Assembly: GCF_001192795.1 (NCBI RefSeq)
Contig: NZ_DF968181.1
Coordinates: 524,342 to 588,341, forward strand
Origin: Flexilinea flocculi
GTDB taxonomy: Bacteria > Chloroflexota > Anaerolineae > Anaerolineales > Anaerolineaceae
DNA length: 64,000 nucleotides
Reading direction: 5' to 3'
In this document: positions 24,275-41,675 of the stretch, piece after piece
Layout of the letters: every line of letters starts with the position of its first letter
Numbering within the stretch: position 1 is the stretch's first letter
Program-made: the position numbers and the translations under genes
Notes under the pieces: generated by a model
Database searches by the model: none
Seen by the model: the letters and a program-made list of their open reading frames with translations, nothing else
What the model was told of the DNA's origin: nothing

Positions 24275-24275
24275 A

Positions 24276-26415: not shown

Positions 26416-26424
26416 GGAGAGGTT

Positions 26425-27042: not shown

Positions 27043-27047
27043 AAAAT

Positions 27048-28217
27048 ATGAAAAAAATGTCCATTGCTGCCTATCTGGCTGTAAAAGAAATTTGGAAATT
27101 TCGCGGCCGTTTTTTGTTGGTCAGTCTGGTGATTGGTTTAATTACACTTCTGGTTTTGTTTATCGCTGCACTGGGTGAAGGATTGGGTAATGGAAACCGG
27201 GAATATCTTTCCAAGCTTGACGGTGAACTGATTGTTTACCAGGCGAAATCTGATTTCTTAATTCCTGCCAGTCGATTGGATCTGAATCGTTTCTCTGAGA
27301 TCAAAAATGTAGAGGGAATATCTGATGTCGGATTATTGGGAACGGCAAACAGTCAATTATTGTTATCCGGTGACGATAATTTTCTGAAAACTGCATTGCT
27401 GGGAGTTGAACCGGGTCACGTGGGCGAACCAAAAGTAATCGAAGGCAGCCAATTAAGTGCTGCTGATGCTGATGAAGTTATTTTGGATCGAAATGTGATT
27501 CTTCGAAGCAATATTCAACTTGGAGATACCATCACCATCCGGGTAACACAAGGTACTGAGGATCAAGTTTTCACGCTGAAGGTAGTCGGTATAACGGATG
27601 GACAGCAGTATGCGCTGCAGCCATCGCTGTTCGTTCCATTTTTTACCTGGGATCGTATTCGACCAAAATCACAGGCTGAGATCAATTTTTCTGATCCTGT
27701 CGCAAATGTTTTCATTGTCAAAGTGGATCAACCGGAAAATGTAGAAATAATCCGTGACAGAATCGAAGAAAAAATCGAAAATGTTGAAACTGCAACCCGG
27801 AAAGAAGCGATACAAGCGCTGCCAGGATATTCCGCACAGCAAAGCACTTTAAACACACAGGGTGGATTTACTTTATTCATTGGTATCCTGGTGATCGGGG
27901 GGTTCTTCCAAATCCAGGTGTTGCAAAAAATTTCGCAAATCGGTGTCTTGAAAGCGATCGGATCAGCAAATTCGGTTGTAGCATGGGCTTCCATTATTCA
28001 GATTACACTGATTACAATGATTGGGGTAGCGATTGGTGCCGGATTGACCTTTTTATTCTCATTATTTTTTCCACCTCAGGTACCGATTGTTTTCAATGGT
28101 ACGACGACAGCTATTGCAATCATTGCGCTGTTGCTGATTGGACCTCTGGGCGGATTGGTGTCCATTCGATATGCAGTGCGGATTGAACCACTGAAAGCTT
28201 TGGGATTATCTTCATAA
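27048..28217 (+). CDS. ABC transporter permease (MacB/FtsX type)
   Basis: 389-residue membrane subunit with one N-terminal helix (LLVSLVIGLITLLVLFIAALG), an extracytoplasmic MacB core-like domain, and three C-terminal helices. GVLKAIGSANSVVAWASIIQ is the classic coupling region of FtsX-like permeases. It pairs with the ATPase encoded 13 bp downstream. Cargo unknown; relatives export lipids, peptides or sense envelope stress. Confidence 0.9.
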   Translation: MKKMSIAAYLAVKEIWKFRGRFLLVSLVIGLITLLVLFIAALGEGLGNGNREYLSKLDGELIVYQAKSDFLIPASRLDLNRFSEIKNVEGISDVGLLGTANSQLLLSGDDNFLKTALLGVEPGHVGEPKVIEGSQLSAADADEVILDRNVILRSNIQLGDTITIRVTQGTEDQVFTLKVVGITDGQQYALQPSLFVPFFTWDRIRPKSQAEINFSDPVANVFIVKVDQPENVEIIRDRIEEKIENVETATRKEAIQALPGYSAQQSTLNTQGGFTLFIGILVIGGFFQIQVLQKISQIGVLKAIGSANSVVAWASIIQITLITMIGVAIGAGLTFLFSLFFPPQVPIVFNGTTTAIAIIALLLIGPLGGLVSIRYAVRIEPLKALGLSS

Positions 28218-28230
28218 CAGGGATCTTAGG

Positions 28231-28959
28231 ATGACAACAATGAATGCATTAGAAACAAAATCGGTAATTAAAACTTATCAAAGCGATTCAGGTGTGATTT
28301 CTGCAGTGGATGATGTGTCACTGAATGTGGCTTCTGGTGAATTTGTCGCTCTCGTCGGTCCCAGCGGTTCCGGAAAAACCACCATGTTGTCCATTCTTGC
28401 CGCGTTATTGAAACCAACTTCCGGGCAAGTGTTGATCGATGGGGTTGATCTCTCCAGTCTGGATGATTTTCAGCGGGTCAATATGCGCAGAGAGAAAATT
28501 GGTTTTACCTTTCAAGCCAACAATTTGGTACCTTATCTCAGTGCCGTAGAAAATGTCGAATTAATGCTGCGCTTGAATAACAAATTGGATAAAGCTGGAA
28601 AATTGCGGGCACGAGAATTGTTGGCGCGTCTTGGTTTGGGGGAACGATTGAACAACTACCCTGGCCAAATGTCCGGCGGACAACAGCAGCGCGTTGCGAT
28701 TGCCCGAGCTTTGATCCACAATCCGAGCCTGGTGTTGGCCGATGAACCAACTGCCAGTCTGGATACGGAACGTGCCTATCAGGTTGTGGAAACCTTTGCG
28801 AGTTTGATACACGAACAGAATCGAGCCGGGATTATGGTCACACATGATTTAAGGATGTGTGAATTTGTTGATCGTGTTCTGATCATGGAAGATGGAAAAT
28901 TAACCAAAATTCTTAAAGATCGAGCTGATATTCGGAAATTATCATCAGCTCGAAATTAA
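28231..28959 (+). CDS. ABC transporter ATP-binding protein (LolD/MacB type)
   Basis: 242-residue ATPase. Walker [13 protein letters not shown]-loop [19 protein letters not shown], signature [15 protein letters not shown], Walker [13 protein letters not shown] and switch His in [11 protein letters not shown] are all intact. It works with the preceding permease. Its 3' end, stop codon and terminator are duplicated in degenerate form at 40.1 kb, which marks the left boundary of the accessory island. Confidence 0.95.
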
Positions 28960-28967
28960 ATAAAAAG

Positions 28968-29010
28968 AGTCTGACTTTTTTCTGATTTTCGAAAAAAGCC
29001 AGACTATTTT
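28968..29010 (+). terminator. Terminator after ABC exporter operon
   Basis: AGTCTGACTTTTTTC (28968-28982) pairs with GAAAAAAGCCAGACT (28991-29005), followed by ATTTTCTTAT. It has a recognisable counterpart at 40196-40245. Confidence 0.85.
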
Positions 29011-29074
29011 CTTATATATGATCCGGATTTCGAAAGTCCATTTTTCGACGTTCCAGCTGAATGATCGATAACGT

Positions 29075-29269
29075 CTAAACTACCGTCGGGACTTCCGGGT
29101 TATTGTTGGCAAAATTCTGCAGGATGACCAACGGTTCGTAGCTGCCCGTATTTTTAATCTCGATGCCTTTCTTTGCAGCGTCTTCCGAAACAAAAAATTC
29201 ATCGCCGGAAATTTGGTCGTATCGCAAAAGGCCGGGTGCTTCACATTCAAAAGCGCCAAATCGACCGTG
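29075..29269 (-). pseudogene. Remnant of the cupin sugar-isomerase 3' end
   Basis: About 195 bp are nearly the same as the 3' end (40309 to about 40503) of the intact isomerase gene. The remnant keeps the stop codon and the C-terminal residues NNPEVPTVV (VPAVV in the intact gene), and its homology ends abruptly near 29269. It has no 5' part and cannot be a functional gene. Together with the flanking terminator it shows that the ATPase/isomerase junction exists twice. Confidence 0.92.
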
Positions 29270-29351
29270 TCAGATTGATCAGGTGTTGTCGATGCGCCTT
29301 GAAAAACTTGATGTTCTACTTATCGAAAAATGCGTAAACCTGCGGAGAATT

Positions 29352-29487
29352 GTCAATAATCGAAGTGATTATGACATAACATCATTTTGAAAACAGAATT
29401 GGCTTATTTCCCAGTTTTATCATTTGGAATCCCATTTTCTCTTTTTCTCTCTCTGTCAAAAAGCATGTTCTTATTTCGAATTGCTGG
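29352..29487. repeat. TIR-hairpin element, degenerate copy 6
   Basis: The right end TTATTTCGAATTGCTGG (29471-29487) is a clear family end; the left end near CAATAATCGAAGTGATT is degenerate and no strong central stem is seen. 29488-29774 is AT-rich promoter-type sequence without a gene. Confidence 0.5.
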
Positions 29488-29774
29488 ATACTCGCATTAA
29501 GTATATAATTTTATATACTATTGAATAAATTCGTGTTTTATATACAGAAGTTAATAATCAGATTCTAACTATTCAAAAATAAAGTCAACACCAAATCATT
29601 ATCATTGACAAGGATAAATCAGTTTCATCATAAAAAATGTCCGAAGTGTTCCATTAATTCACAAGACATTTATTCTTTTTATGATTGTCCTTTCTTGATG
29701 AGCGCTTCGTTAATATTTGTGCATTTTTTCTGCTGATAGTGACGGACCCAATTAAACCAATCAGGAGGACGATT

Positions 29775-31394
29775 ATGTTTCGTAAATTTATCAAACTCAT
29801 TATTACCAATATTTTATTTCTCTCTGCTTGCACTCCTCAAGCTCCTATTCAACCAGTGGTTGAAAGCACTTCCACAATAGGAAATAAACTCGAAACACAA
29901 AGGCCAAGCAATGACAGCTTGACTCCCACCGGTTTTTATTGGCCGACTGGTACAGACAACTGGGTAACAGGGGGACCATACATGGGCCAAGCCTGTAAGC
30001 CTCCCTACACTTATGACGCCGGTCCCGGAACTTATCATATAGGCTGGGACATCATGCAGGATGAAAATACATCGGTTCGCGCAATTGCAGATGGGCAAGT
30101 GGATTGGGTTAGCACAGGTGGCTGGGCAGACGATGATTACAGCACTGCTACACCCCAGGTGGATCAAAACGTAGCATTAGTTATTAAACACAAACTCAAT
30201 GACGGCACCTCCTTCTTTGCAGTTTATGGACATATCCGCACTGATTTGATGCAAAACGCTACCGTCACAGCAGGAGAGGCTATTGGAACGATTGGCCCCT
30301 GGAAATACGGCACTCACCTGCATTTTGGGATTTATGAAAGCGCCATAATGCCGACCAAACATGGTCGCCTTCCCTGCCCAGCGTTAGGAGATGCCTTCGA
30401 AGCGAGCATGCTTGATGAAAAACAGTGGCGGAATCCCTATGTGTGGATCACTACAAAATATCCGGGTAATTACCTGGAGAATACGGCAAGTTCCAACAGC
30501 GTTGCATCTTTTGGAGCTCTAGCGCAATCCATAACTTCAAACCAATTACACGGCAAAATAGTTTTTGTTGCAAGTAAAACAGTCAAGCCCAATTCTCTTG
30601 AAATATTAGACCTTGATAGCAATCAAAGAAGGCAAATTGCTCATGGAAATGAGTACCTTGGTCCCACTTTCTCACCTGATGGTACCAAAATAGCATATTA
30701 CACAACAAATTCAGGATTAGGCGAAATTAATATATATGATGAAACCGACCAATCCACCAAGCAGATTGTTAAGCTTGATGTTGTGGATTCAAGATCGCCA
30801 TTGGAAGGGGGTGGTTTTTCTTATTCAATTGCCTGGTCCCCCGACGGTCAACGAATCGCTTTTCTTATACCGGATTCCATACTGATAAGCGATATCGAGG
30901 GAAAAGAAGTAAGAAAAATCGCAAAGGCAATAGTCCCGGGTTCTCTCTCCTGGTCATTAGATGGAAGCAAAATTCTTTTTTCTGCTAGTAAACCTGAAGA
31001 ACCGCAAAAAGCCATGGGTGCAATTTTTCTTCTCAACATTGAGGATGGAAAAATTGAGAAGTTTATCGAGGATGATAATTACCATTCACGGGATGTTGAA
31101 TATTCTCCTGATGGTCTTCAAATCATATATAACACGAGTAAAAAGGATGGAACATCACACGGAGAATTACACTATTATGTAATGGATTTACAAAGCGGCG
31201 TAGTTAAGGAGATACTTGGGGCAGATTATTTATATAATCCGCATTGGGCTTCATCACATGAAATTTTATTTGAAAAAGTGGATTTAGGCGGATCGGGTAT
31301 CTCAGCCATTAATCTTATTTCGAACGAAATCTATTCAGTCATTCAACCCCCACTAATTGATGGTGGGTTTGATTACTACTCAGCAAATCAATAA
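29775..31394 (+). CDS. M23 metallopeptidase lipoprotein with TolB-like repeats
   Basis: Predicted peptidoglycan endopeptidase anchored outside the membrane (539 residues). The lipobox is LFLSAC near residue 19. The LytM/M23 domain (about 90-230) keeps the zinc ligands in YHIGWDI and HLHFGI and the VYGHIRTDL strand, so catalysis is likely. The C-terminal half has TolB-type blades (FSPDGTKIAYYT; WSPDGQRIAFLI; WSLDGSKILFSA; YSPDGLQIIYNT). The ATG at 29775 follows GGAGGA; the earlier in-frame codon 29685 lacks a signal peptide. It is paralogous to the M23 gene at 38.6-39.6 kb (shared TGFYWPTG, MPCP and VWITTKYP) and faces it across the island. Confidence 0.9.
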   Translation: MFRKFIKLIITNILFLSACTPQAPIQPVVESTSTIGNKLETQRPSNDSLTPTGFYWPTGTDNWVTGGPYMGQACKPPYTYDAGPGTYHIGWDIMQDENTSVRAIADGQVDWVSTGGWADDDYSTATPQVDQNVALVIKHKLNDGTSFFAVYGHIRTDLMQNATVTAGEAIGTIGPWKYGTHLHFGIYESAIMPTKHGRLPCPALGDAFEASMLDEKQWRNPYVWITTKYPGNYLENTASSNSVASFGALAQSITSNQLHGKIVFVASKTVKPNSLEILDLDSNQRRQIAHGNEYLGPTFSPDGTKIAYYTTNSGLGEINIYDETDQSTKQIVKLDVVDSRSPLEGGGFSYSIAWSPDGQRIAFLIPDSILISDIEGKEVRKIAKAIVPGSLSWSLDGSKILFSASKPEEPQKAMGAIFLLNIEDGKIEKFIEDDNYHSRDVEYSPDGLQIIYNTSKKDGTSHGELHYYVMDLQSGVVKEILGADYLYNPHWASSHEILFEKVDLGGSGISAINLISNEIYSVIQPPLIDGGFDYYSANQ

Positions 31395-31426
31395 TTCTAT
31401 TCCATTTCACAAAGGATGTAACAAAA

Positions 31427-31466
31427 CAGCAATTCGAAAAGGGTTCTTCCTAATTTCGTATTGCTG
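31427..31466. repeat. TIR-only minimal element (40 bp)
   Basis: CAGCAATTCGAAAAGGG and TAATTTCGTATTGCTG lie back-to-back, reproducing both ends of the family with no central hairpin. Confidence 0.7.
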
Positions 31467-31567
31467 CTAACGATTCCGGGAACTTCAAGCATAAGCCGCT
31501 GGATAACAGGCTTGCGGTTCGTAAGTAAGCGATCAATAATCCAACGTCATCTAAGAACGGAAGATAT

Positions 31568-33163
31568 CTACTTTAGGGCGCAATTTTGTTGGATGAAATT
31601 ATTCCAAGGCATTAATGATTCAATGTCTTCGTGAGATGGATTTTCTTCGAGCATCGGGAGTTCTGTAAGCAAGCGAAGAAGATAGCTGTATGGATTAAGC
31701 CTATTTGCCTTAGCAGTTTCCACAATGGAATACACCACAGCACTGGCTGTAGCACCATTAGGCGTATCACTGAAAAGCCAGCCTTTTCTACCGATCACAA
31801 AAGGACGAATAGCATTCTCGACTTGATTGTTACTGATATCAATTTCGCCATGGTCAATAAAAGTTTCGAGGTAAGCTTTTTGATTCAGAGAATATCTGAC
31901 AGCATCAGCAAGTTTGCTGCCATTGTCTGGAATGAAAGACTGCAACCATAACCAGAATTCATCTAAAATTGGCTTGCTTTCTCTTTTTCTTGCTTTACGT
32001 CTGTCATCATTCGAAAGATTTACAAAACATTTTTCCAATTCAAACAGTTTATTGCAATATTCAAAACCAACAACAGCTTTAGAATTCTTTGCAGTAGCTC
32101 CATTCGGCATTGCATCATGCCAATACCGGCGGAGATGTGCCCAACATCCTGCTCTGGTTACACCTTCCAATTTATTGTATCCGCTGTAACCGTCAGTGAT
32201 TAATATTCCATGGTATCCATCCAGAAAGTCTTTTGCACAATCTCCCTTCCGGGAATCATGATAATCGAAAATCCGTATCGGATGAGTTCCCCGGACTGCC
32301 GAGGCATAGACCCACATCTCAGATTTCGATGTCGCTGCCTTCCCAGGCTCTTTTAAGACTTGAACCGTCGTCTCATCAGCGTGTATAGCTTTTTCTTTCA
32401 GCAATGACTCTTTCATCGCATCATAAATTGGCATCAACCAATTTTGTGTCGAAGTAATTACCCAGTTTGCCAACGTATTTCGTGGAATGTTTATACCTAA
32501 ACGCTTCCATTCCTGTTCCTGGCGATAGAGCGGCATACCTTCAACGTACTTACTGGTCATCACGTCTGCCACACTTGATGGCGATGCAAGACTGTTCTTC
32601 ATAACAGGCGGAACTACTTTTGCCTCTATAAAATGTTTTTTCCCTGTGGCTTCATCTACATCAAGACTTACATAGACATTAGTATAGAAATCGACCAATG
32701 AAAAACTTTTTGGAACGATAATCATCTCAGTACGAATACGCTTTTTAGCAACAAATTTGTATGGTCGCCCGAATTTGTCTATTCGCTGTTCAAGAGGTAC
32801 GTCATATACAACTTCTGTCCGAGGCAGATCTTTGCAGATTTCTTCCCGGGTTCGTTTCTTTTTCCGTTCATGTCCCTTGACTAAAGTGACAAATGTTTCC
32901 GGGGTCGGTTCTGGTGATTTTTCGTCTTGCTCTTGTTCAGCTTCATTAAACAGAGATGGCTGACACTGGTTATCAGCGATGACGTACTTGCTTTTCTCAC
33001 TGTGCTGACCGAATCGATTCCGTTGAAAGTTGAGTAATATCTGATTCAATCGTTCAATTTCGTGATCTTTCGTATTGAGTTGCTGTAGAAATATATCAAT
33101 GACCTCTGGCGAAGTTCCCGGATATTTTTTAAGGATTTCCCTTTCCAGTGTGGTCTTTTCCAT
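31568..33163 (-). CDS. tnpC: IS66 transposase TnpC
   Basis: 531-residue DDE transposase. The N-terminal leucine-rich segment (EIERLNQILLNFQRNRFGQHSEKS) is typical of IS66, and catalytic regions include IHADETTVQVL, ITDGYSGYNKLEGVTRAGCWAHLRRYW, and VENAIRPFVIGRKGWLFSDTPNGA. It ends with the IS66 C-terminal domain (SLMPWNNF). Full length with no disruption. Confidence 0.97.
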   Translation of the reverse strand: MEKTTLEREILKKYPGTSPEVIDIFLQQLNTKDHEIERLNQILLNFQRNRFGQHSEKSKYVIADNQCQPSLFNEAEQEQDEKSPEPTPETFVTLVKGHERKKKRTREEICKDLPRTEVVYDVPLEQRIDKFGRPYKFVAKKRIRTEMIIVPKSFSLVDFYTNVYVSLDVDEATGKKHFIEAKVVPPVMKNSLASPSSVADVMTSKYVEGMPLYRQEQEWKRLGINIPRNTLANWVITSTQNWLMPIYDAMKESLLKEKAIHADETTVQVLKEPGKAATSKSEMWVYASAVRGTHPIRIFDYHDSRKGDCAKDFLDGYHGILITDGYSGYNKLEGVTRAGCWAHLRRYWHDAMPNGATAKNSKAVVGFEYCNKLFELEKCFVNLSNDDRRKARKRESKPILDEFWLWLQSFIPDNGSKLADAVRYSLNQKAYLETFIDHGEIDISNNQVENAIRPFVIGRKGWLFSDTPNGATASAVVYSIVETAKANRLNPYSYLLRLLTELPMLEENPSHEDIESLMPWNNFIQQNCALK

Positions 33164-33245
33164 GAGGTAATTATCTCACAATACGAGTAATTTTCACGGA
33201 ATATATGTCCTTTTTATGCCTCAATTACTCTTGAACTTTATTCTT

Positions 33246-33602
33246 CTAAAACAGATCTCTTTGCTTCGTCTTTTGAATTGATCTTGCCTGATAAATCGAC
33301 AGACCATCCATCAGCCAACGGAACTCTTGCGGCGTGATCTGTTTCAGCTCTTCCGCGTTACGAGGCCATTGAAACCGGCTGTCTGCCAGTCGTTTATATA
33401 GCAGAACATATCCTGTACCGTCCCAGAATAATCCTTTGAAGCGATCGGATTTCCGGCCACAGAATAAAAACAGGCTGTCTTCTTCCAACGCTTGCCCATA
33501 TTTATTTTTTACAATCACGGCAAGACCATCGATGCCTTTTCGGATGTCCGTGTAGCCGGTTGCCACGTAAAAATGATTCATATTCTCCAATAGCTTTAGC
33601 AT
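33246..33602 (-). CDS. tnpB: IS66 accessory protein TnpB
   Basis: 118-residue IS66 Orf2 protein, recognised by YVATGYTDIRKGIDGLAVIV, LFLFCGRKSDRFKGLFWDGTGYVLLYKRL and FQWPRNAEELKQITPQEFRWLMDGL. It overlaps tnpA by 7 bp, indicating translational coupling. Required for efficient IS66 transposition; its biochemical role is not well defined. Confidence 0.96.
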   Translation of the reverse strand: MLKLLENMNHFYVATGYTDIRKGIDGLAVIVKNKYGQALEEDSLFLFCGRKSDRFKGLFWDGTGYVLLYKRLADSRFQWPRNAEELKQITPQEFRWLMDGLSIYQARSIQKTKQRDLF

Positions 33603-33946
33603 ATTTCTTTTATCGCTTTCAGCACGGATATGATATCCGTTGGTTCCGCCCCGGCCGGGATGTCCAGGATGTAACTCATATATTGGATCTGAATTCCACG
33701 CTCACTTTTTTCTTTTTTCTTCGGAAGTTCAACTCGGACGATGGCTTCATCCTGGTTTTCGTTTTCAGCTACAGCAAGTTCCAGCGCCGCTTTTCGCACT
33801 TTTTTCAACCAATAATAATAGACATGCTCTTTTATCTCATGCCGGGCACACCACACTTTGATTGTCAAACCACTTTCATGGCAACTTTTGACAGCGGTGG
33901 CCATCTCTTGTATTCGGTAGGTTCTTTTTGCCTCTTTTATCTCCAT
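33596..33946 (-). CDS. tnpA: IS66 accessory protein TnpA
   Basis: 116-residue IS66 Orf1 protein with an IS3-like helix-turn-helix (AKRTYRIQEMATAVKSCHESGLTIKVWCARHEIKEHVYYYWLKKVR). First gene of the IS operon, preceded by GAGAGGAAAA as RBS. Confidence 0.94.
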   Translation of the reverse strand: MEIKEAKRTYRIQEMATAVKSCHESGLTIKVWCARHEIKEHVYYYWLKKVRKAALELAVAENENQDEAIVRVELPKKKEKSERGIQIQYMSYILDIPAGAEPTDIISVLKAIKEIC

Positions 33947-34090
33947 TCGTTTTCCTCTCGCTTGAAAAACTCGGATTACAGTTTTTCGAGTTTTTCTAGA
34001 TGTTTTTACTGATGAGAGGATTATCCGTTATTGATCAGAGGTTTTCAATCCGTCTTCTTATTGATCGCTTACGTTCGTAAAGCGTGAGAA

Positions 34091-34288
34091 CTATCTTACC
34101 CAAAAATCCACTATTCCTCTGGAGCGCCTTCGTAATTTCTGGTATTCTGCTTCATTCAGGAATGCAGCGGTATTCAGATTGTTTGTCATCTCAAAATCTG
34201 ACCTGAATTTTTCCAAATCTTGAAGATCTTTCTCGTATGCTCTCGCCAAAATAATGAATTGATCCTTGATGGCAAACCCGCTGTTTTT
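34091..34288 (-). other. Possible gene remnant in the gap next to IS66
   Basis: A minus-strand frame without a start codon stays open for 65 codons, with gene-like composition (ARAYEKDLQDLEKF; NTAAFLNEAEYQKLRRR) before a TAG at 34091. Its upstream end runs into a hairpin CCCGCTGTTTT/AAAACAGCGGG (34277-34307). I do not recognise the product. The rest of the gap (34308-34647) holds a damaged TIR-element end (AATTTCAAATTACTG, to 34384) and AT-rich sequence. Confidence 0.35.
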
Positions 34289-34647
34289 TCATTTATAAAA
34301 CAGCGGGCTCAGGAATTGCTGGTGAGTCGAAAAATCAATTGCGGCTCAATATTTCGAAAGACCGGTCGAAATTTCAAATTACTGATTCTAATCGGCAAAA
34401 TTCACATAACTTTTTAGCTTTACAAAATTGTAAAAATGATCCATAGAGGAATTTATTACATTCCTCTACGGAAACTAATGATTTCCGATTCTTTTCGGTA
34501 ATCTTATTTTTGCGACTTTCGGCTACTTTCCATTTTATGATCGATATGAGCGGACGAAACCTTAAGATCCGCCAGTATAAAAGATAGCTCTTATGTATTC
34601 TATGTTTTTACAACAATTCTAAAAGAATTGATAAGCGAAGCTTCGAT

Positions 34648-35637
34648 CTATTCAACAACCTCAGTAGTATGAATTTTGTATAACACATTCGAATCGAATT
34701 TTGGAATTAAATACAATTCCTCGGGTAAGGATTCATCGATTTCCGCATAAACAAATTTAATTTCTTTTTCAATTTCCTGTAATGGAGCCAATGAAAGATC
34801 TATCCATTCATTCCAATAGATCCTGTCTTTTTCTTCATTGTTCTTTAGATCATAAAGTTGAAAATAATCCTCAAAAACAAAAGATCTTTGTTTTGTCTTA
34901 TCCAAATTCTTCACCTTAATCACTGATTGTATTTCTTCTTGATCTGAGTCTACAAGAAAATCATTGCTTAAGTCTATCTGATAATCATCAACAGTGAAAG
35001 AATTTGTAACATCATCCAGTATTTCTCTTTTTATTTCAGGAATATTTGGTTCCATATTTTCAGAAATCTTTATTTGTAGGTTGATTCCTGGAAAAACAAG
35101 ACTCTGATAATTCATTGCCTCAGGAATTGCAAAATAAAAATAATTGGGTTGATAATTATTAAAACCAATAACGGGAATTGGAATCCCCTCATATAGGTTT
35201 TCATTGTGAAAATCCTGCTCCACTCCGAATTGAGCTGGATAATCCACACCAGCATCAGTCGTTACAAATAACAAAATTTCCGATTCTGGTTTAAGTGGTG
35301 CTAATAAATCATCATGAGATAAATATTCTCCAATCATTTTAATTCTATCAAAAATAGTCTTGAAAATATTAGGATAATCATCAAGTTCATAAATATCCTG
35401 ATCCGCTCTGATCCAAAAATTACACTTAATGTCTTTCCATCCTTCAGGAGAAAAGTCAAGATAAAAGTCAAGATCAGTTTGTTCACAATTGATAATTCCC
35501 AGATCTATATTTACTTCGTCATAGGATATTACTCCATCAATTCTCTCTTTGGCCATTCCTGTTTCGGAACTGAAAAAAAGAAAAAATACAAGACAAGCAG
35601 TAATGCTTACAATAATTTTCAAGTTATGATTCTTCAT
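34648..35637 (-). CDS. Exported protein of unknown function, tandem paralog 1
   Basis: 329 residues with a signal peptide (LKIIVSITACLVFFLFFSSETGMA). The body is an unrecognised, acidic, beta-rich sequence. Blocks shared with paralogs 2 and 3: IDLGIINCE, FSPEGWKDIKC.FWIR, VTTDAGVDYPA, IPEAMNYQSLVFPGINLQI, and IKVKNLD.TKQ. Segments between blocks have diverged. This is the most diverged of the three, with a unique DLDFYL insertion and RSFVFEDYFQLYD. SD GGAGTGA precedes the ATG. It is the last member of a tandem array that starts at an M23 peptidase gene; the function may be linked to that peptidase (inference). Confidence 0.8.
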   Translation of the reverse strand: MKNHNLKIIVSITACLVFFLFFSSETGMAKERIDGVISYDEVNIDLGIINCEQTDLDFYLDFSPEGWKDIKCNFWIRADQDIYELDDYPNIFKTIFDRIKMIGEYLSHDDLLAPLKPESEILLFVTTDAGVDYPAQFGVEQDFHNENLYEGIPIPVIGFNNYQPNYFYFAIPEAMNYQSLVFPGINLQIKISENMEPNIPEIKREILDDVTNSFTVDDYQIDLSNDFLVDSDQEEIQSVIKVKNLDKTKQRSFVFEDYFQLYDLKNNEEKDRIYWNEWIDLSLAPLQEIEKEIKFVYAEIDESLPEELYLIPKFDSNVLYKIHTTEVVE

Positions 35638-35666
35638 GATTCACTCCTTCGATGTTTGGTTTTCGT

Positions 35667-35693
35667 ATAATGAACATACTCTACATTCATTAT
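35667..35693 (-). promoter_or_regulatory. Conserved dyad upstream of paralog 1
   Basis: ATAATGAA (35667-35674) and TTCATTAT (35686-35693) form an inverted repeat about 30-56 bp before the start codon. The same dyad precedes the other two paralogs, so it could be an operator or promoter element, or simply part of the duplicated unit. Confidence 0.5.
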
Positions 35694-35779
35694 TTATTTG
35701 GGACAAACGATTATTTTAAGTCTTGATAAAAGGATTTTGCATTCTTCCGAGATTCCGTGATCAATAAGATGTTCCTTGT

Positions 35780-35993
35780 TTACGGTTTCGATCCATCCGG
35801 ACAAGGTTGTATTTCCCAAGCATTTTTTACACTTTCAATTTCTAACACTTCGTAAGAAGGTGTCAATGCTCCTGAAACCGTCCACCCGTCTTCCTCTTTT
35901 AAGAACATGAAACTAAATGCATCGATAATTACCGGGTTTACTCCCAAATAACTTTTTAAATTGAGGAGTCCAATTCTTAAACCATATCGTTAA
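35780..35993 (-). pseudogene. Truncated, frameshifted copy of the M23 peptidase tail
   Basis: Reads as the C-terminal tail of the M23 protein at 38.6 kb (WFKNW, then FLKEEDGWTVSGALTPSYEVLE and ending DGSKP), but lacks the catalytic domain. A one-base change in the IIDAF region shifts the frame (TAG within the reading frame entering from WFKNW). It was carried along by tandem duplication. Confidence 0.85.
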
Positions 35994-36013
35994 TCAGTTT
36001 TTAGAGAAATTGC

Positions 36014-36049
36014 GTAAGCGGTCAATAAGTAGACTTATTGACCGCTTAC
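36014..36049. repeat. IS66-end-like palindrome (remnant 1)
   Basis: GTAAGCGGTCAATAA and TTATTGACCGCTTAC are separated by only 6 nt. Each matches the 15-bp ends of the IS66 copy at 31.5 kb in 14 of 15 positions. It lies exactly between paralog 2's 3' end and the truncated M23 tail. It may also act as a terminator for paralog 2. Confidence 0.75.
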
Positions 36050-36108
36050 GTTTTATTTAATCGATGATTTTTCAACAATTGAAATAGAATGATAAGAAAA
36101 ATTGAATG

Positions 36109-37065
36109 TTAATCAACTCTAAATTTAATTTTATAGAATTTATTTGAATCAGATTTATCGATTAGAAATATCTCATCAGATTTCCTAACCAATTCAATGG
36201 TAAAATCAAGAACTCTTTCCTCTTCCTGTAATGGGGCTAAATTATAATCAGGGTCTTTCATTTCGAATTGACTATTTGCTCTTAGGTGATAAAAGCTATA
36301 TAATTTACCAATATTAAATTTTTTTTGTTGGGTCATATCCAAGTTTTTTACTTTTATGAGTGAATTGAACTTATAATAGTTTTCACCTTCAGGAATGACA
36401 ACCCAATCGTTGGAAAGTTCGATTTGAATGTCATCAATAATGATACTATCAGGAACACCATCCAGTATTTCTCTTTTGATTTCAGGAATATTCGGTTCCA
36501 TATTTTCAGAAATACTAATTTGTAGGTTGATACCTGGAAAAACAAGACTCTGATAATTCATTGCCTCAGGAATTGTAAAATAAAAAGATAAGGTTTGTGA
36601 ATAATAATCATTTGGATAAATTGCGGGAATTGGTATCCCCCCATATTTGTTAATTGTATCAGAATAATCAAGATCATTTTTTTCGATACGGACTGTATAA
36701 TTCACACCAGCATCAGTCGTAACAAACATCCACGTTTTCGATGCTGGATCATGGGGTTCTAAATATGAAACAAAAAGCTCATAATCAATTTCACCAAATA
36801 CACTTCTAAAAATATCTTCTTTATCAACTGTCAAATCTTTATCTGGTCTGATCCAAAAATAACACTTTATGTCTTTCCAACCTTCAGGAGAAAAGTCAAG
36901 ATCATCCTTTTCACAATTAATAATTCCCAGATCAATATTTACTCCGTTATACGGTATTACCATATCAATTCTTTCTTTGGCCATTCCTGTTTCGGAACCT
37001 AAAAAAAGAAAAAATACAAGACAAGCAGTGATGCTTACAATAATTTTCAAGCTATGATTCTTCAT
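36109..37065 (-). CDS. Exported protein of unknown function, tandem paralog 2
   Basis: 318 residues with signal peptide (LKIIVSITACLVFFLFLGSETGMA), N-terminally almost the same as paralogs 1 and 3. The conserved core includes VTTDAGVNYTVRIE, PEAMNYQSLVFPGINLQISISENMEP and IEL SNDWVV (IQIELSNDWVV), with a C-terminal LAPLQEEERVLDFTIELVRKSDEIFLIDKSDSNKFYKIK shared closely with paralog 3. No catalytic or binding motif is recognised. Start-to-start distance to its neighbours is 1428 and 1421 bp, showing a regular duplication unit. Confidence 0.8.
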   Translation of the reverse strand: MKNHSLKIIVSITACLVFFLFLGSETGMAKERIDMVIPYNGVNIDLGIINCEKDDLDFSPEGWKDIKCYFWIRPDKDLTVDKEDIFRSVFGEIDYELFVSYLEPHDPASKTWMFVTTDAGVNYTVRIEKNDLDYSDTINKYGGIPIPAIYPNDYYSQTLSFYFTIPEAMNYQSLVFPGINLQISISENMEPNIPEIKREILDGVPDSIIIDDIQIELSNDWVVIPEGENYYKFNSLIKVKNLDMTQQKKFNIGKLYSFYHLRANSQFEMKDPDYNLAPLQEEERVLDFTIELVRKSDEIFLIDKSDSNKFYKIKFRVD

Positions 37066-37094
37066 GATTCACTCCTTCGATTTTTGGTTTTCTT

Positions 37095-37122
37095 ATAATG
37101 AACTTATTCCACGTCCATTATT
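37095..37122 (-). promoter_or_regulatory. Conserved dyad upstream of paralog 2
   Basis: ATAATGAA at 37095-37102 and TCCATTAT near 37115-37122, the same dyad as upstream of paralogs 1 and 3 with one mismatch. Confidence 0.45.
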
Positions 37123-37208
37123 TATTTGGGACAAACGTTTTTCTTAAAGACTTGATAAAAGGATTTTGCATTCTTCCGAGATTCCGTGATCAATAAGATG
37201 TTCCTTGT

Positions 37209-37424
37209 TTACGGTTTCGATCCATCCAGACAAGGTTGTATTTCGCAAGCTTTTCTTACACTTTCATTTTCTAACACTTCGTAAGAAGGTGTCAATGCTC
37301 CTGAAACCGTCCACCCATCTTCCTCTTTTAAAAATATGAAACTAAATGCATCGATAATTTGCGGGTGGACTCCCCAATACCAGCTAAATGGAGAATTCCA
37401 ATTCTTAAACCATATCGTCAATCG
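37209..37424 (-). pseudogene. Truncated copy of the M23 peptidase tail
   Basis: An open 70-codon frame starting at ATA/ATC-type codons reads WFKNWNSPFSWYWGVHPQ and continues to LDGSKP, close to the last 70 residues of the M23 gene at 38.6 kb. The catalytic domain is missing and no RBS is evident. It is therefore a remnant, though translation from an internal start cannot be excluded. Confidence 0.85.
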
Positions 37425-37441
37425 GTTCTTAGAGAAATTGC

Positions 37442-37478
37442 GTAAGCGGTCAAATAAATAGACGGATTGACCGCTTAC
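37442..37478. repeat. IS66-end-like palindrome (remnant 2)
   Basis: GTAAGCGGTCAA ... TTGACCGCTTAC. The first 28 nt, including AGACGGATTGA, align with the right end of the IS66 copy read inward (GTAAGCGATCAATAA then GAAGACGGATTGA). This longer match makes an IS66 origin more likely than chance. It sits at the same duplication joint as remnant 1. Confidence 0.75.
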
Positions 37479-37535
37479 GTTCTATTTAATCGATGATTTT
37501 TCAACAATTGAAATGGATTGATTGATAAAAAAAAT

Positions 37536-38486
37536 TTAATGCAAATAATCAACTCTATATTTAATTTTATAGAATTTATTTGAATCAAATTTTGCGATTA
37601 GAAATATATCATCAGAATCCGTACCCAATTTAATGGTAAAATCAAGAACTCTTTCCTCTTCCTGTAATGGGGCTAAATAAAAATAAGGTTTATTGATTTC
37701 GCATTGACTATTTGTTCTTAAGTTATAAATTCCAAAATATTGGCTAATATTAAATTCTTTTTGTTGGGTCCTATCCAAGTTTTTTACTTTTATAAGTGAA
37801 TTTAACTTATACCAACTACCTTCAGAAATGACAACCCAATCGCTGGAAAAGTCGATCTGAATGTCATCAATAATGATACTTTCAGGAAAACCATTCAATA
37901 TTTCTCTGTTGAAATTAGGAGTATTCAGTTCCATATCATAGGATATCATAATTTCTTTGTTAATTTTAGGAAAAACAAGACTCTGAAAATTCATCGCCTC
38001 TGGAATTGTAAAATAAAAATATCCAAGTTGAAAATCTTTATCAAAAAGAGAGGGTATTGGTATTCCTTTATACATATTGAAGGTAAAATTAAAGTATTCG
38101 TATTCAATTAAGGCAGGATAATCTACACCAGCATCAGTTGTTACATAAAACAAATTATCTTTTGATTCTGAATCAATAGGTTTAAGATATGAGTTATCAA
38201 CCACATCACCAAGACCATTTGTAATGTCATATAGGTAAGAAATAAGCATGTCGTCTTTTTGATCTTCTCTTATCCAAAAATAACACAAAGAATCTTTCCA
38301 ACCTTCAGGAGAAAAGTCAAAATCAGCCTTTTCACAATTCCAAATTCCCAAGTCAAAGTTTACTTCGTTATAGGATGTTTCTCCATCAATTCTCTCTTTG
38401 GCCATTCCTGTTTCGGAACCGAAAAAAAGAAAAAATACAAGACAAGCAGCGATGCTTACAATAATTTTCAAGCTTTGATTCTTCAT
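37536..38486 (-). CDS. Exported protein of unknown function, tandem paralog 3
   Basis: 316 residues with signal peptide (LKIIVSIAACLVFFLFFGSETGMA). Shares the family blocks FSPEGWKDSLCYFWIRED, VTTDAGVDYPALIE, YFTIPEAMNFQSLVFP, IIIDDIQIDFSSDWVV and the acidic C-terminal LAPLQEEERVLDFTIKLG. It lies directly downstream of the intact M23 gene (143 bp apart, same strand), so it is probably the founder of the duplicated units. No known domain is recognised. Confidence 0.8.
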   Translation of the reverse strand: MKNQSLKIIVSIAACLVFFLFFGSETGMAKERIDGETSYNEVNFDLGIWNCEKADFDFSPEGWKDSLCYFWIREDQKDDMLISYLYDITNGLGDVVDNSYLKPIDSESKDNLFYVTTDAGVDYPALIEYEYFNFTFNMYKGIPIPSLFDKDFQLGYFYFTIPEAMNFQSLVFPKINKEIMISYDMELNTPNFNREILNGFPESIIIDDIQIDFSSDWVVISEGSWYKLNSLIKVKNLDRTQQKEFNISQYFGIYNLRTNSQCEINKPYFYLAPLQEEERVLDFTIKLGTDSDDIFLIAKFDSNKFYKIKYRVDYLH

Positions 38487-38515
38487 GATTCACTCCTTCG
38501 ATGTTTGGTTTTCAA

Positions 38516-38542
38516 ATAATGAACATACTCTACATTCATTAT
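38516..38542 (-). promoter_or_regulatory. Conserved dyad upstream of paralog 3
   Basis: ATAATGAA (38516-38523) with TTCATTAT (38535-38542), identical to the dyad upstream of paralog 1. Confidence 0.5.
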
Positions 38543-38629
38543 TTGTTTGGGACAAACGTTTTTTCTTAAAGTCTTGATAAAAAATTTTTCATTCTTCCGA
38601 GATTCCGTGATCAATAAGATGTTCCTTGT

Positions 38630-39649
38630 TTACGGTTTCGATCCATCCGGACAAGGTTGTATTTCCCAAGCTTTTCTTACACTTTCAATTTCTAACACTT
38701 CGTAAGAAGGTGTCAATGCTCCTGAAACCGTCCACCCGTCTTCCTCTTTTAAAAATATGAAACTAAATGCATCGATAATTTGCGGGTGGACTCCCCAATA
38801 CCATTTAAATGGAGGACTCCAGTTTTTAAACCACATCGTTAATATGTTCGCAGTCGTCGAAATAGCAACACATTCAGGTGGGTTCGTTAATCTGGATTGA
38901 ATGTCATCCAGGAATGTTTTTTTACTGAGAACGATAAAATTATGAGTGCCTATCGTGTTTATTGCAACCGTTGCATTTTTAATAATTTCTTCAAGAACTG
39001 AAATGTCATTGTTATATAGACCATATACAATCCATGACGCTAATTCATCGAAAGTCTTAATACGATTCAAGTTTTGCGATTTTTCCGGATATTTTGTAGT
39101 GATCCACACAATTGGATCAACACTTCCATTCATATCATATGATTCTCCAGATTTTGGACAAGGCATCATTCCAAGTTGTTTTAGATTTGGTATTATAACC
39201 CCATCAAATATGGATAGATGGAGGTGAGGCGGATCGTAATCTCCGATCGTACCGATGGGTTTTGTGACTTTAACTTCATCGTTCTGTTTCAATTCGGTCT
39301 TGATATGGCCATAAACTGCAATAAAATTTTTTCCATCGCTTAGCTGATGAAGGATTAAAAGTGCAACATTACCATTTCCCCAACCTTTTTTGCTTATAGA
39401 AATTACTTTCCCGTCTGCTATTGGATAAACAGGATCCTTTACCTCAGCATCTATATCGACACCGATATGGTATTGCGTCGAGATATACTCTTCTTTACCC
39501 TTACATCCGCTTGAATTGTATTTGTTTAGTATTTTCGGTTCAGAGCCTGTTGGCCAATAAAAGCCGGTTTCTGTCATTTTTGCATCGCGAAATCCAGTAT
39601 TAAGTATGGTAATTAGCAAAAACAAAATGAATTGCATTCTTCTTTCCAT
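38630..39649 (-). CDS. Secreted M23 metallopeptidase
   Basis: 339 residues, predicted peptidoglycan hydrolase. A short hydrophobic N-terminus (MQFILFLLITILNTGF) suggests export; there is no lipobox. The M23 domain has YHIGVDID, VYGHIKTELK and PPHLHLSIFD, retaining zinc-ligand positions. The C-terminal domain (about 180-339) ends with FLKEEDGWTVSGALTPSYEVLE and a Cys-Pro tail; this tail is what is duplicated twice downstream. RBS AAGGAG precedes the ATG. It is a paralog of the M23 lipoprotein at 29.8 kb without the TolB-like half. Confidence 0.88.
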   Translation of the reverse strand: MERRMQFILFLLITILNTGFRDAKMTETGFYWPTGSEPKILNKYNSSGCKGKEEYISTQYHIGVDIDAEVKDPVYPIADGKVISISKKGWGNGNVALLILHQLSDGKNFIAVYGHIKTELKQNDEVKVTKPIGTIGDYDPPHLHLSIFDGVIIPNLKQLGMMPCPKSGESYDMNGSVDPIVWITTKYPEKSQNLNRIKTFDELASWIVYGLYNNDISVLEEIIKNATVAINTIGTHNFIVLSKKTFLDDIQSRLTNPPECVAISTTANILTMWFKNWSPPFKWYWGVHPQIIDAFSFIFLKEEDGWTVSGALTPSYEVLEIESVRKAWEIQPCPDGSKP

Positions 39650-40107
39650 AAATCTCCTTCTTGATTCTCAAAAAAATTGAATAGAATGTTCGATTTTTTG
39701 AAACAATTAATTACGTACGATACATGGTAATTTTGCAATTTATTAATTTGGTCAGAATTAAGGATCTAATTTCATTTGATAATGAAATAATTAGCACTGG
39801 ATACTATTCGAATCCGAAAATATTATATTATGTTTATTCTGTAACAATTAATCCATTATTGTTATAACATAAGAGGGATCAAATTGTAAACATATTGAAA
39901 AGAATATAATAATCATAAAAATTTCATAAAAAATTCGCAGAAATGTGACATTATCAAATACTAAGAATAATCAAATATCACACTTGTTACTATGAAATCG
40001 ATAATTGTTGCAAAAAAATTGATGATATTGTAAGCATCAGCGACCCAATTTGGACCACGTTCAATTTACCCAGCTCAACTTGAAAAAAAAAGAACGATAT
40101 TATAAAA
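39650..40107. other. AT-rich intergenic stretch at right edge of island
   Basis: No gene is supported. It holds small dyads (ATTTCATTTGATAATGAAAT near 39770; TTATGTT...AACATAA around 39831-39870) and many A/T runs, unlike the sugar genes to the right. Confidence 0.5.
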
Positions 40108-40193
40108 TTTGGGAGAGCGATTAAGCAACAATATCCGCTAAATGTCCGGCGGACAGCACAGATATTCGAACGATATCATCAGCGCGTAATTAA
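40108..40193 (+). pseudogene. Collapsed remnant of the ABC ATPase gene
   Basis: 40109-40160 aligns with the signature region of the ATPase at 28.6 kb ([15 protein letters not shown]; shared AAATGTCCGGCGGACA). It then jumps directly to the gene's last codons and stop (GATATTCG...ATCATCAG then AATTAAATAAAAAG). About 240 bp between signature and C-terminus are deleted. With the terminator that follows, it is the second copy of the island's left junction. Confidence 0.9.
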
Positions 40194-40195
40194 AT

Positions 40196-40245
40196 AAAAA
40201 GAGTTTGTCTTTCTTCGACCTTTCGATAAAGACAAACTCTTTTTT
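40196..40245. terminator. Terminator between ATPase remnant and isomerase gene
   Basis: AAAAAGAGTTTGTCTTT pairs with AAAGACAAACTCTTTTT across a short loop. It is positioned like the terminator at 28.97 kb and can end the minus-strand sugar operon. Confidence 0.85.
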
Positions 40246-40308
40246 GTGCATGATGAGAATTTTGAAATCTCTATTTTTCGACGTTCCAGCCGAAAAATGG
40301 GACTGTGT

Positions 40309-41511
40309 CTAAACTACAGCCGGCACTTCCGGGTTATTGTTGGCAAAATTTTGCAGAATAACCAGTGGTTCGTAGCTGCCCGTATTTTTAATCTCGATGC
40401 CTTTCTTTGCAGCATCTTCCGAAACAAAAAATTCATCGCCGGAAATTTGGTCGTATCGCAAAAGGCCGGGCGCTTCACATTCAAAAGCGCCAAATCGACC
40501 ATGTCCCTGGACGACCAGCGCGCAATAACACGCCTGGTCATGCAGCGTAACCAATGCACCAGGTTGTATGGTAACTTCTTTCGCCGCGATCCACTCATTG
40601 GCGTAGGCAACCCATTTTTCGCTCATGCCTTTTTGTTTTTCCGGCAGGGACTTCGGAGGGCGGAAGTATTTTTGTTTGTAATCCGGCCGGGTGCTCTCTT
40701 CCCAGTCGATTTGAGCAAAGAGACTTTCAATGTTGTCTTTTTCGGATTCCGGCTGGCAGTCTGTGAGCAGATTATGCGGATTGATTTCACCCATGGTGAC
40801 ATTTTCCATAATCGTGTTGACATCACTGTTCCATTGCGGTTCGTACGTAACCACAGAAGCCGGCGCATGAATAACTCCAGCCGGTGTGTACCAGCCGGTT
40901 CCCAGTTTGACGCGGTAAGCTCGTGACAGCTCGGTAATTCGGGTATCGAATTTATCGTAGTTGCGGATGCAGTTGATGACTTCTTCTTTGGTCACGGACG
41001 GATCAAATCCAAAATAGGTCAGCGGGAAACGCCCCAGATAGGCATTGTATTGAACCGGGAAGTAATATGCTTCGGGTTTTCCATGGCGACCGATTTTATT
41101 TGCTTTTTCTTCTGTCAGATGCAGATGATGGAACAATGGTTTGTCGTAATCATAAAGCTTGGCAAAGGTTGGCCAGGTACCATAGCGATCAAACAGACCT
41201 TTACCAATCACTTCTGCGCCAAGTTCTTCAACCACATCGGCAAACAGAATTTTTTCATGTCCGGATTCATCTGCAAGTACGAAACTCATTCCTTCTGTCG
41301 GTCCGGTTTTCGGACCATTCAAAGCGACTGTCACCGATCCAAGCCAGCGTTCGCTGATGCCTCCGCGATCCATCCCAAAGGCAAAATAATCATCCGGGTG
41401 TAATCGAATTCTGCGACCTGGTTCATTAAAGCCTCTTGGAACCCAGGTTGGAGTGAGATGTAACACTCCTTTTCCATTTTGAAATGTTTCGCGTATCTTT
41501 TCTTTTATCAT
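40309..41511 (-). CDS. Mannose-6-phosphate-isomerase-like cupin sugar isomerase
   Basis: 400-residue cupin-fold protein; similar proteins in sugar operons isomerise aldoses to ketoses. Visible features: MDRGGISERWLGSV, FDRYGTWPTFAKLYDYDKPLFHHLHLTEEKA (a likely metal-binding His cluster), GTGWYTPAGVIHAPASVVTYEPQWNSDVNT (second metal/pocket segment), and the C-terminal cupin GHGRFGAFECEAPGLLRYDQISGDEFFVSE. ATG 41511 follows AAGGAGG; the upstream TTG at 41517 is too close to the RBS. It is the last gene of the aldolase/isomerase unit. The exact sugar is unknown. Confidence 0.78.
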   Translation of the reverse strand: MIKEKIRETFQNGKGVLHLTPTWVPRGFNEPGRRIRLHPDDYFAFGMDRGGISERWLGSVTVALNGPKTGPTEGMSFVLADESGHEKILFADVVEELGAEVIGKGLFDRYGTWPTFAKLYDYDKPLFHHLHLTEEKANKIGRHGKPEAYYFPVQYNAYLGRFPLTYFGFDPSVTKEEVINCIRNYDKFDTRITELSRAYRVKLGTGWYTPAGVIHAPASVVTYEPQWNSDVNTIMENVTMGEINPHNLLTDCQPESEKDNIESLFAQIDWEESTRPDYKQKYFRPPKSLPEKQKGMSEKWVAYANEWIAAKEVTIQPGALVTLHDQACYCALVVQGHGRFGAFECEAPGLLRYDQISGDEFFVSEDAAKKGIEIKNTGSYEPLVILQNFANNNPEVPAVV

Positions 41512-41552
41512 GATCAATCCTCCTTTTTACTGTTATAGAATCGGGCTTTCTT

Positions 41553-41675
41553 CAGTAATTCGAAATTTGAACGAACCTTTTGAATCAATCGAGAAAACTC
41601 GTTGTTGTGTTGTTTTTGCGCTACGCGCAAAAACAACACAACAACGAATCATTATCCCCATATTTCGAATTGCTG
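41553..41675. repeat. TIR-hairpin element, copy 7 with target duplication (123 bp)
   Basis: The left TIR is CAGTAATTCGAAATTTG and the right TIR CATATTTCGAATTGCTG. The central arms (about 41600-41621 and 41626-41646) are perfectly complementary (GTTGTTGTGTTGTTTTTGCG). The sequence GGGCTTTCTTC occurs at both ends (41543-41553 and 41675-41685), an 11-bp direct repeat that overlaps the element by one base on each side. It separates the isomerase from the aldolase gene. Confidence 0.9.

What the first reader, a model, noticed from the sequence alone, without database searches (positions are those of the whole stretch)
28640..40510. 11-kb accessory island flanked by a duplicated gene junction
The junction 'ABC ATPase 3' end - terminator - sugar-isomerase 3' end' appears twice. 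On the left the ATPase is intact and the isomerase is a 195-bp stub (29075-29269). On the right the ATPase is a collapsed remnant (40108-40193) and the isomerase is intact. The ATPase and isomerase genes were therefore convergent neighbours before an event placed 11 kb of M23, IS66 and tandem-paralog genes between partial copies. The two copies have diverged, so the event is old or came by recombination with a related strain.
Basis: partly seen in the sequence, partly recalled or inferred. Interest (0 to 1): 0.8.

Follow-up and report, generated by a model that had tools for sequence, protein, structure and literature searches.

The report
Island between two mismatched gene-junction copies
An 11-kb stretch of rare genes in the bacterium Flexilinea flocculi sits between two versions of one gene junction that look like they come from two different lineages, so the site was probably stitched together by recombination rather than by one duplication.

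Summary
In Flexilinea flocculi TC1 (Chloroflexota) the convergent ABC-ATPase/isomerase junction occurs twice (28635-29270, 40108-40504) around 10.8 kb of DNA. One congener, Flexilinea sp. MO118, has both genes intact and adjacent without the island: the empty site. Dating changes the story. Left and right isomerase ends differ by 10 synonymous changes but one amino acid, without indel or premature stop, so the left stub belonged to a working gene until recently. The right ATPase remnant is old (in-frame stop, net 239-bp deletion, 11 of 51 bases changed). The truncations differ in age, so the copies look like diverged homologues joined by recombination, not products of one duplicative insertion. 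Neighbouring genes (26.4-46.7 kb) are also less diverged from MO118 than control genes, as expected for a block exchanged between lineages. IS66 (31525-34072) is a later passenger. The other island genes, as whole genes, were found in no other genome searched (60 to 399 others, by gene). They include one full M23 peptidase, three diverged, probably secreted paralogues and two M23 3' remnants, a layout like a displaced effector/immunity array; that function is untested.

The parts
28231..28959 (+). Intact ABC-transporter ATPase of the left junction copy
   Evidence: PF00005 8.2e-37; best NCBIfam hits DevA/LolD-like but below their cut-offs; 96% aa and dS 0.388 to MO118
28635..29270 (.). Left copy of the duplicated junction (ATPase 3' part, terminator, isomerase 3' end)
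   Evidence: repeats D8, D16, D20; alignment with MO118
28963..29010 (.). Left bidirectional terminator-like hairpin; sequence differs from the right one but the stem is kept
   Evidence: fold -16.3 (+) and -23.3 (-) kcal/mol, z -3.9 and -6.1
29075..29269 (-). Isomerase 3' stub, 64 codons plus stop, reading frame intact, one amino-acid difference from the intact copy
   Evidence: L-R dS 0.276, dN 0.007
29271..40107 (.). Accessory island; no other long copy of its DNA seen in the TC1 genome
   Evidence: 40 of 155 first-look candidates scored; other matches 26-47 bp; empty site in MO118
29685..31394 (+). M23 peptidase with PD40/TolB-like propeller, signal-like N-terminus (my reading)
   Evidence: PF01551 1.2e-9, PF07676 9.5e-15; 39% identical over 208 columns to the other M23 protein
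31525..34072 (-). IS66-family element (transposase 31568-33163, TnpB 33246-33602, HTH protein 33596-33946), later insertion
   Evidence: PF03050 6.1e-92, PF05717 2e-33, PF01527 1.7e-6; matching inverted ends; 8-bp repeat GTTCGTAA at 31517-31524 and 34073-34080 read
34648..35637 (-). Orphan paralogue P3, signal-like N-terminus (my reading)
   Evidence: 59% aa to P2; no Pfam, NCBIfam or PHROG family at the limits used
35779..36005 (-). M23 3' remnant S2, frameshifted
   Evidence: 22/225 differences from the intact M23 3' end
36014..36049 (.). 36-bp perfect palindrome whose halves match the IS66 end at 14 of 15 bases
36109..37065 (-). Orphan paralogue P2
37209..37434 (-). M23 3' remnant S1, frame still open
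   Evidence: 18/226 differences from the intact M23 3' end
37442..37478 (.). Second, imperfect copy of the palindrome
37536..38486 (-). Orphan paralogue P1
   Evidence: 65% aa to P2
38630..39649 (-). Full-length M23 peptidase at the head of the array, signal-like N-terminus (my reading)
   Evidence: PF01551 3.5e-12; only in TC1 among 61 genomes at E<=1e-12
40108..40193 (+). Decayed ATPase remnant: 11 of 51 bases changed, in-frame stop, net 239-bp deletion
   Evidence: stop read
40108..40504 (.). Right copy of the duplicated junction
   Evidence: intergenic part closer to MO118 (19/113 differences) than the left one (35/113)
40309..41517 (-). Intact isomerase, phosphomannose-isomerase-like fold, closest relatives outside Flexilinea in Firmicutes
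   Evidence: 14 best Foldseek hits all PMI, best E 2.5e-10 but TM-scores only 0.47-0.51 on the query and 10-13% identity; 72-82% aa to 13 of 15 aligned Firmicutes relatives, 65-66% to the other two

Best explanation
The two junction copies are diverged homologues from two haplotypes of the same locus, brought together by recombination between Flexilinea lineages. One haplotype (like MO118) had ATPase and isomerase intact and convergent. The other carried the island directly left of the isomerase, with only a decayed ATPase remnant between them. Shown: the empty site, the two copies, their unequal decay, the synonymous pattern and the low-divergence block. Inferred: in a recent exchange the island-bearing haplotype was joined to the island-free one, homologously on the isomerase side and by an illegitimate joint on the other side, cutting the resident isomerase at 29270 (homology-facilitated illegitimate recombination). 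A sub-model not excluded is an old insertion whose left copy was later overwritten by homologous exchange with island-free relatives. IS66 inserted later into the island.
For: Empty site in MO118. Stub L versus intact R isomerase over 64 codons: 10 synonymous and 1 non-synonymous difference, dS 0.276, dN 0.007; L-G dS 0.276, R-G 0.379. Ten of 11 synonymous has p = 3e-6 if all sites were neutral, but 6 of those 11 lie on the branch of the functional right gene. On the left branch alone 3 of 4 changes are synonymous (p = 0.04), and 4/191 left-derived stub changes compare with 6 synonymous right-derived ones in about 43 sites (p = 0.004; 0.008 if the ambiguous site is given to the left). The one amino-acid change (A to T) also stands in intact homologues (2 of the 17 aligned rows that have a residue there; 20 rows aligned). 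The right ATPase piece has 11/51 right-derived changes; left stub versus right remnant p = 9e-6. Both terminators keep their hairpin although 33 of 113 intergenic columns differ. Fourfold-site divergence from MO118 is 0.14-0.31 for 7 genes at 26.4-46.7 kb against a median of 0.48 for 27 control genes. The ATPase is found in 2 of 14 genus genomes at E<=1e-60 (45 candidates scored per genome), the isomerase in 3 of 14, one of them only 39% identical. TC1 is an isolate (PMC4599078, whole text), so a strain mixture in the assembly is unlikely.
Against: Only one relative shows the empty site, and the three-way comparison rests on about 190 bp, so counts are small; the test on the left branch alone is only p = 0.04. 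The left intergenic region has more left-derived changes (23/113) than the left stub (4/191), which one clock does not explain; it could mean a local replacement. No second island-bearing genome was found, so the donor haplotype is hypothetical. The core 26.4-46.7 kb was chosen after seeing the profile and its genes are not independent; one of its 15 windows is at 0.43, adjoining genes at 25000 and 46728 are at background (0.47, 0.46), and lower values also occur elsewhere in the window: 57544-58110 and 58097-58669 (0.34, 0.32) and 60053-61177 (0.36). Codon bias was not controlled. The island end at the left joint has no known homologue, so the joint cannot be reconstructed.
Confidence: 0.65

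Rival explanations
1. A single old insertion duplicated the junction (tandem or target duplication), and the two copies then diverged in place by drift.
For: The two copies share one ancestral 636-bp segment and the island lies exactly between them.
Against: A dead stub drifting since then should carry changes at all sites; it has 4 left-derived changes in 191, 3 synonymous, no indel, no stop, while the other truncated gene decayed. Left-right synonymous divergence (0.276) is close to that with MO118 (0.28-0.38), so the split of the copies is not recent.
Confidence: 0.15
2. A circular molecule carrying the island and a fragment of the junction integrated by one crossover (Campbell type), giving direct repeats with one intact and one truncated partner on each side.
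For: The geometry (ATPase intact left, isomerase intact right, partial partners) is what single-crossover integration of an internal fragment gives. In E. coli, single crossovers of partly degraded, recircularised plasmids gave partial duplications of 109-950 bp (PMC3240628, passages).
Against: Both truncated ends would have been on the same circle and should be equally old; they are not. No replication, relaxase or integrase family was hit by the eight larger island ORFs scanned; smaller ORFs were not scanned.
Confidence: 0.12
3. The island is a classical mobile element (integrative element or IS66 composite transposon) and the repeats are its att sites or target duplication.
For: It holds an IS66 element and its part at 34-40 kb has lower G+C (0.31-0.34).
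Against: No tRNA in the window; the one recombinase recognised is a single IS66 with its own 8-bp target duplication inside the island. A 636-bp duplication is far longer than an IS66 target duplication (8 bp, recalled).
Confidence: 0.03
4. Assembly error joins two places or two strains.
For: The genome is a draft of 16 contigs in 3 scaffolds from Illumina paired and mate-pair reads.
Against: Isolate, average 60x coverage, manual refinement with mate pairs; the left joint is not at sequence shared by the two copies, where assembly chimeras usually form.
Confidence: 0.05

Closest known systems
Homology-facilitated illegitimate recombination (HFIR; S. pneumoniae, Acinetobacter baylyi, Pseudomonas stutzeri)
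   Same: Foreign DNA anchored by homology on one side and joined without homology on the other (PMC3240628, passages).
   Different: Inserts described there average about 1 kb with deletions of similar size; here 10.8 kb, two homologous copies both remain, and the event is only inferred.
Flexible/replacement genomic islands exchanged by homologous recombination (PMC4033161, search listing only)
   Same: Accessory genes inside a block whose flanks show recent exchange between lineages.
   Different: Here one flank leaves a mismatched partial gene copy, recording the joint.
Effector displacement arrays with orphan immunity genes, e.g. Vibrio cholerae T6SS (PMC5361080, passages), and Rhs orphan 3' ends (mentioned there)
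   Same: One full effector-like gene (M23) followed by several diverged downstream genes separated by 3' remnants of that gene.
   Different: The M23 3' remnants are alike rather than variable; no secretion system was looked for or seen; toxicity and immunity untested; the paralogues were found nowhere else.
Transformation-induced merodiploidy in S. pneumoniae (PMC3784515, passages)
   Same: Recombination of imported DNA leaves duplicated sequence.
   Different: Those duplications are about 100-900 kb and need chromosomal repeats; here 0.6 kb of diverged homologous sequence.

Membership tests
HFIR product | One side joined by homologous recombination | tested here: inconclusive
   Right flank collinear with MO118 and of low divergence, but no crossover point could be located without the donor.
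HFIR product | Other side joined without homology, truncating a resident gene | tested here: met
   Left homology to the isomerase stops at 29270 with no shared sequence beyond; stub looks recently truncated. Which side was resident is not known.
Single-event duplicative insertion / tandem duplication | Both truncated partners are equally old | tested here: not met
   Left stub 4/191 derived changes versus right remnant 15/84, p = 9e-6.
Integrative element | Integrase gene and att site, often at a tRNA | tested here: not met
   No tRNA in the window; no integrase among the eight larger island proteins scanned.
IS66 composite transposon | IS copies bounding the island | tested here: not met
   One complete IS66 inside the island with its own 8-bp target duplication.
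Effector/immunity displacement array | Full effector gene followed by downstream genes separated by effector 3' remnants | tested here: met
   M23 38630-39649, P1, S1, P2, S2, P3.
Effector/immunity displacement array | Downstream genes far more diverged than the remnants between them | tested here: met
   Mature-part dS 0.29-1.30 in 8 of 9 comparisons, against 18-23 differences in about 225 remnant sites; exception P1-P2 C-terminal part dS 0.10.
Effector/immunity displacement array | Head protein kills competitors and downstream proteins protect | not testable with these tools
   No Pfam, NCBIfam, PHROG or PADLOC family for the paralogues at the limits used; model of P2 is poor (pLDDT 47).

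The most novel reading that the evidence does not exclude
The island is a cell-wall-hydrolase competition locus of a Chloroflexota bacterium: a secreted M23 peptidase as effector and three diverged secreted paralogues as immunity proteins, separated by 3' remnants of displaced M23 genes. The array and the island's own left flank would then both be products of the same process, repeated homology-anchored replacement between lineages.
Probability: 0.3. Interest if true: 0.65.

Novelty: new member of a known kind. Interest (0 to 1): 0.42.

Why it matters
The site is a readable record of recombination between diverged lineages in a poorly studied phylum: two truncated gene ends of different ages date two separate joints. 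It also shows that a flanking repeat around an island need not be a duplication made by the insertion. If the M23/paralogue array is an effector/immunity array, it would be a new family of interbacterial competition genes in Anaerolineaceae.

Tried and rejected
Rejected: integrative element (no tRNA, no integrase seen), IS66 composite (single IS66 with own target duplication), one-time duplication and Campbell integration (unequal decay). Recent gene conversion of the left stub from the right isomerase is rejected because left-right dS is 0.276.

Led nowhere: structure prediction of paralogue P2 (pLDDT 47; no fold search made with it); loose Pfam scan of the paralogues (only sub-threshold hits, best TraK_N 0.016); P2 in plasmids (no match); paralogue alignment in viral contigs (336 pattern matches, no relative); M23 in viral contigs (1 pattern match, no relative); M23 in plasmids (10 records, all below 60% identity and below 80% coverage); PADLOC (no match); the 40-aa frame at the island's left edge (1 of 147 family genomes, TC1 itself). 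Natural competence genes in TC1 and the IS66 transposase in other genomes were not looked for.

Rows dropped: genes were counted only with at least 150 aa, at least 70% aa identity over at least 60% of the length and at least 40 fourfold sites; the 27 control genes come from 4 of 20 TC1 stretches, the other 16 gave no gene that passed. The counts set aside 14 gapped columns. In one search I aligned the window isomerase with 17 of the 48 loci and 2 loci. The genome-contig scan used one protein, which finds close relatives only.
Full report
What and where. The window lies at G000:C3:524342-588341 in a genome of 3,510,630 bases in 3 contigs. That size and scaffold number equal those of Anaerolineae strain TC1 in PMC4599078 (read whole). 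Its close congener is named Flexilinea sp. MO118 in the record; that strain TC1 is called Flexilinea flocculi is from my own knowledge.

Observation. The repeats are as described: 28635-28685 / 40108-40158, 28927-28996 / 40161-40230 and 29073-29271 / 40307-40505, the second and third at spacing 11234, the first at 11473. The right copy therefore lacks a net 239 bp. A genome-wide DNA search shows no third long copy (besides the two copies, four matches of 38-80 bp). The ATPase is an ABC_tran protein.

Empty site. In MO118 (G010) the isomerase (C55:1242-2447, +) and the ATPase (C55:2570-3295, -) face each other with 122 bp between the matches. Window 22633-29271 and 40161-41534 align to one continuous MO118 stretch with an overlap of 346 bp; the 51-bp remnant extends the duplicated segment. 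Among 14 genus genomes only TC1 and MO118 have a long match to the ATPase and junction. The island's M23 gene occurs in 1 of 61 genomes at E<=1e-12, the paralogue in 1 of 61 and in 1 of 400 phylum genomes, and the M23-PD40 gene as a whole in 1 of 147 family genomes, with two further propeller-only matches; each time the one genome is TC1.

Age of the two truncations. With MO118 as reference, changes on the left branch are 1/33 in the ATPase tail, 23/113 in the intergenic part and 4/191 in the isomerase stub; on the right branch 4/33, 7/113 and 6/191; 1, 3 and 1 sites are unresolved. In the further ATPase remnant 11/51 are right-derived, 0 left-derived, 2 on the MO118 branch and 1 unresolved. 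In codons, left and right isomerase ends differ by 10 synonymous and 1 non-synonymous change (dS 0.276, dN 0.007; left-MO118 dS 0.276; right-MO118 0.379). If the stub had been dead for most of that time it should have gathered amino-acid changes, stops or indels; it has one change (A to T near the end), and T stands there in 2 of the 17 aligned isomerases with a residue at that column (20 rows aligned). Tests: left branch 3 of 4 synonymous p = 0.04; left total against right synonymous p = 0.004; stub against left intergenic p = 1e-7; stub against right ATPase remnant p = 9e-6. The right ATPase piece reads with an in-frame TAA (read). So the isomerase was cut recently and the ATPase remnant is old. 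One event would explain both truncations only if rates differed strongly.

Terminators. The left and right hairpins both remain stable on both strands, although 33 of 113 intergenic columns differ. That fits two junctions that each worked for a long time in separate lineages. The excess of left-branch changes in this segment is unexplained.

Block. Synonymous divergence from MO118 is low around the island: peroxiredoxin-like 26425-27042 0.385, permease 0.33, ATPase 0.388, isomerase 0.366, aldolase 0.55, 44741-45367 0.224, 45738-46718 0.398. Towards the window ends it is mostly 0.98-1.66, with lower exceptions: the first 116 codons of 10955-12049 (0.366), 57544-58110 (0.607), 58097-58669 (0.45) and 60053-61177 (0.586); genes left of 10955 lie outside the MO118 stretches compared. 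The fourfold profile drops from 0.48 to 0.17 near 16446 and, at 26.4-46.7 kb, is 0.12-0.35 in 14 of 15 windows and 0.43 in one. Against 27 control genes from elsewhere (median 0.48; 1 of 27 at or below 0.27), 7 core genes have 0.14-0.31, 6 of 7 at or below 0.27 (rank test p = 8e-5). The core was chosen after seeing the profile and its genes are neighbours, so that p value is only a guide. The ATPase is found in 2 of 14 genus genomes at E<=1e-60 and the isomerase in 3 of 14, one only 39% identical. Of the 48 isomerase loci one is Flexilinea, one Acidobacteria (40%), and the rest bear Firmicutes/Clostridia titles. The natural reading is an accessory block that moves between Flexilinea lineages by homologous recombination.

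Mechanism. I favour this order: an island-bearing haplotype in which the ATPase had long been lost; an island-free haplotype as in MO118; then a recent exchange that joined them, homologous on the isomerase side and illegitimate on the other, as in HFIR (PMC3240628, passages). The reverse direction (island haplotype as recipient) and an overwritten left copy are not distinguishable here.

Inside the island. IS66 (31525-34072) has matching ends, and I read an 8-bp repeat GTTCGTAA on both sides: a simple later insertion. The array reads, on the minus strand, M23 (full), P1, M23 remnant, P2, M23 remnant, P3. Remnants, spacers and signal-like starts are 80-98% alike by 100-column windows, mature parts 49-93%, with mature-part dS from 0.10 to 1.30 and mosaic relationships. 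Drift after duplication alone does not give remnants with 18-23 differences in about 225 sites next to genes with dS near 1; exchange of diverged alleles through conserved flanks does. The layout resembles what Kirchberger et al. describe for V. cholerae immunity arrays, for which they suggest a process akin to HFIR (PMC5361080, passages). That the M23 and P proteins are secreted is my reading of their N-termini; no signal-peptide program was run. Whether the M23 protein is an effector and the paralogues immunity proteins is untested.

Verdict. A real, well-placed observation. The mechanism is known in kind; the evidence separates two joints of different age. Interest is moderate, and the array is the part that could be new. 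I found no paper on this locus, but made only two searches naming Flexilinea (15 and 8 papers listed, most of them unrelated).

Noticed in passing
34648-38855: Array of three orphan paralogues separated by M23 3' remnants, with conserved flanks and strongly diverged mature parts; P1-P2 C-terminal part has dN 0.17 over dS 0.10.
   Followed up: partly
36014-36049 and 37442-37478: Palindromes at the array-unit joints whose halves match the IS66 terminal repeat at 14 of 15 bases (2 mismatches to the search pattern in the second copy); the perfect form occurs once in the TC1 genome. Possibly a collapsed IS66-type element.
   Followed up: partly
41553-41675, 62908-63031, 53741-53865 and others: Dispersed element with inverted ends like CAGYAATTCGAAAT / ATTTCGAATTGCTG: 20 end-like matches in the window against 1.7 expected, and many 81-85% copies of the 62908-63031 stretch in MO118 contigs. 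MITE/REP-like; one end lies just inside the island at 29473.
   Followed up: partly
42707-44000: Array of about 123-bp tandem repeats next to the aldolase gene; the MO118 contig C55 ends at this place in the alignment.
   Followed up: no
40309-41517: The isomerase is 72-82% identical to 13 of 15 aligned Firmicutes proteins and not found in 11 of 14 Flexilinea genomes: probable transfer from Firmicutes into an ancestor shared with MO118.
   Followed up: partly
about 16446: Sharp drop in fourfold divergence from MO118 (0.48 to 0.17) inside a 2020-aa gene (16224-22286), a likely recombination breakpoint.
   Followed up: partly
28960-29072: Left terminator region carries 23 left-specific changes against 4 in the adjacent 191-bp stub; not explained by one clock.
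   Followed up: partly
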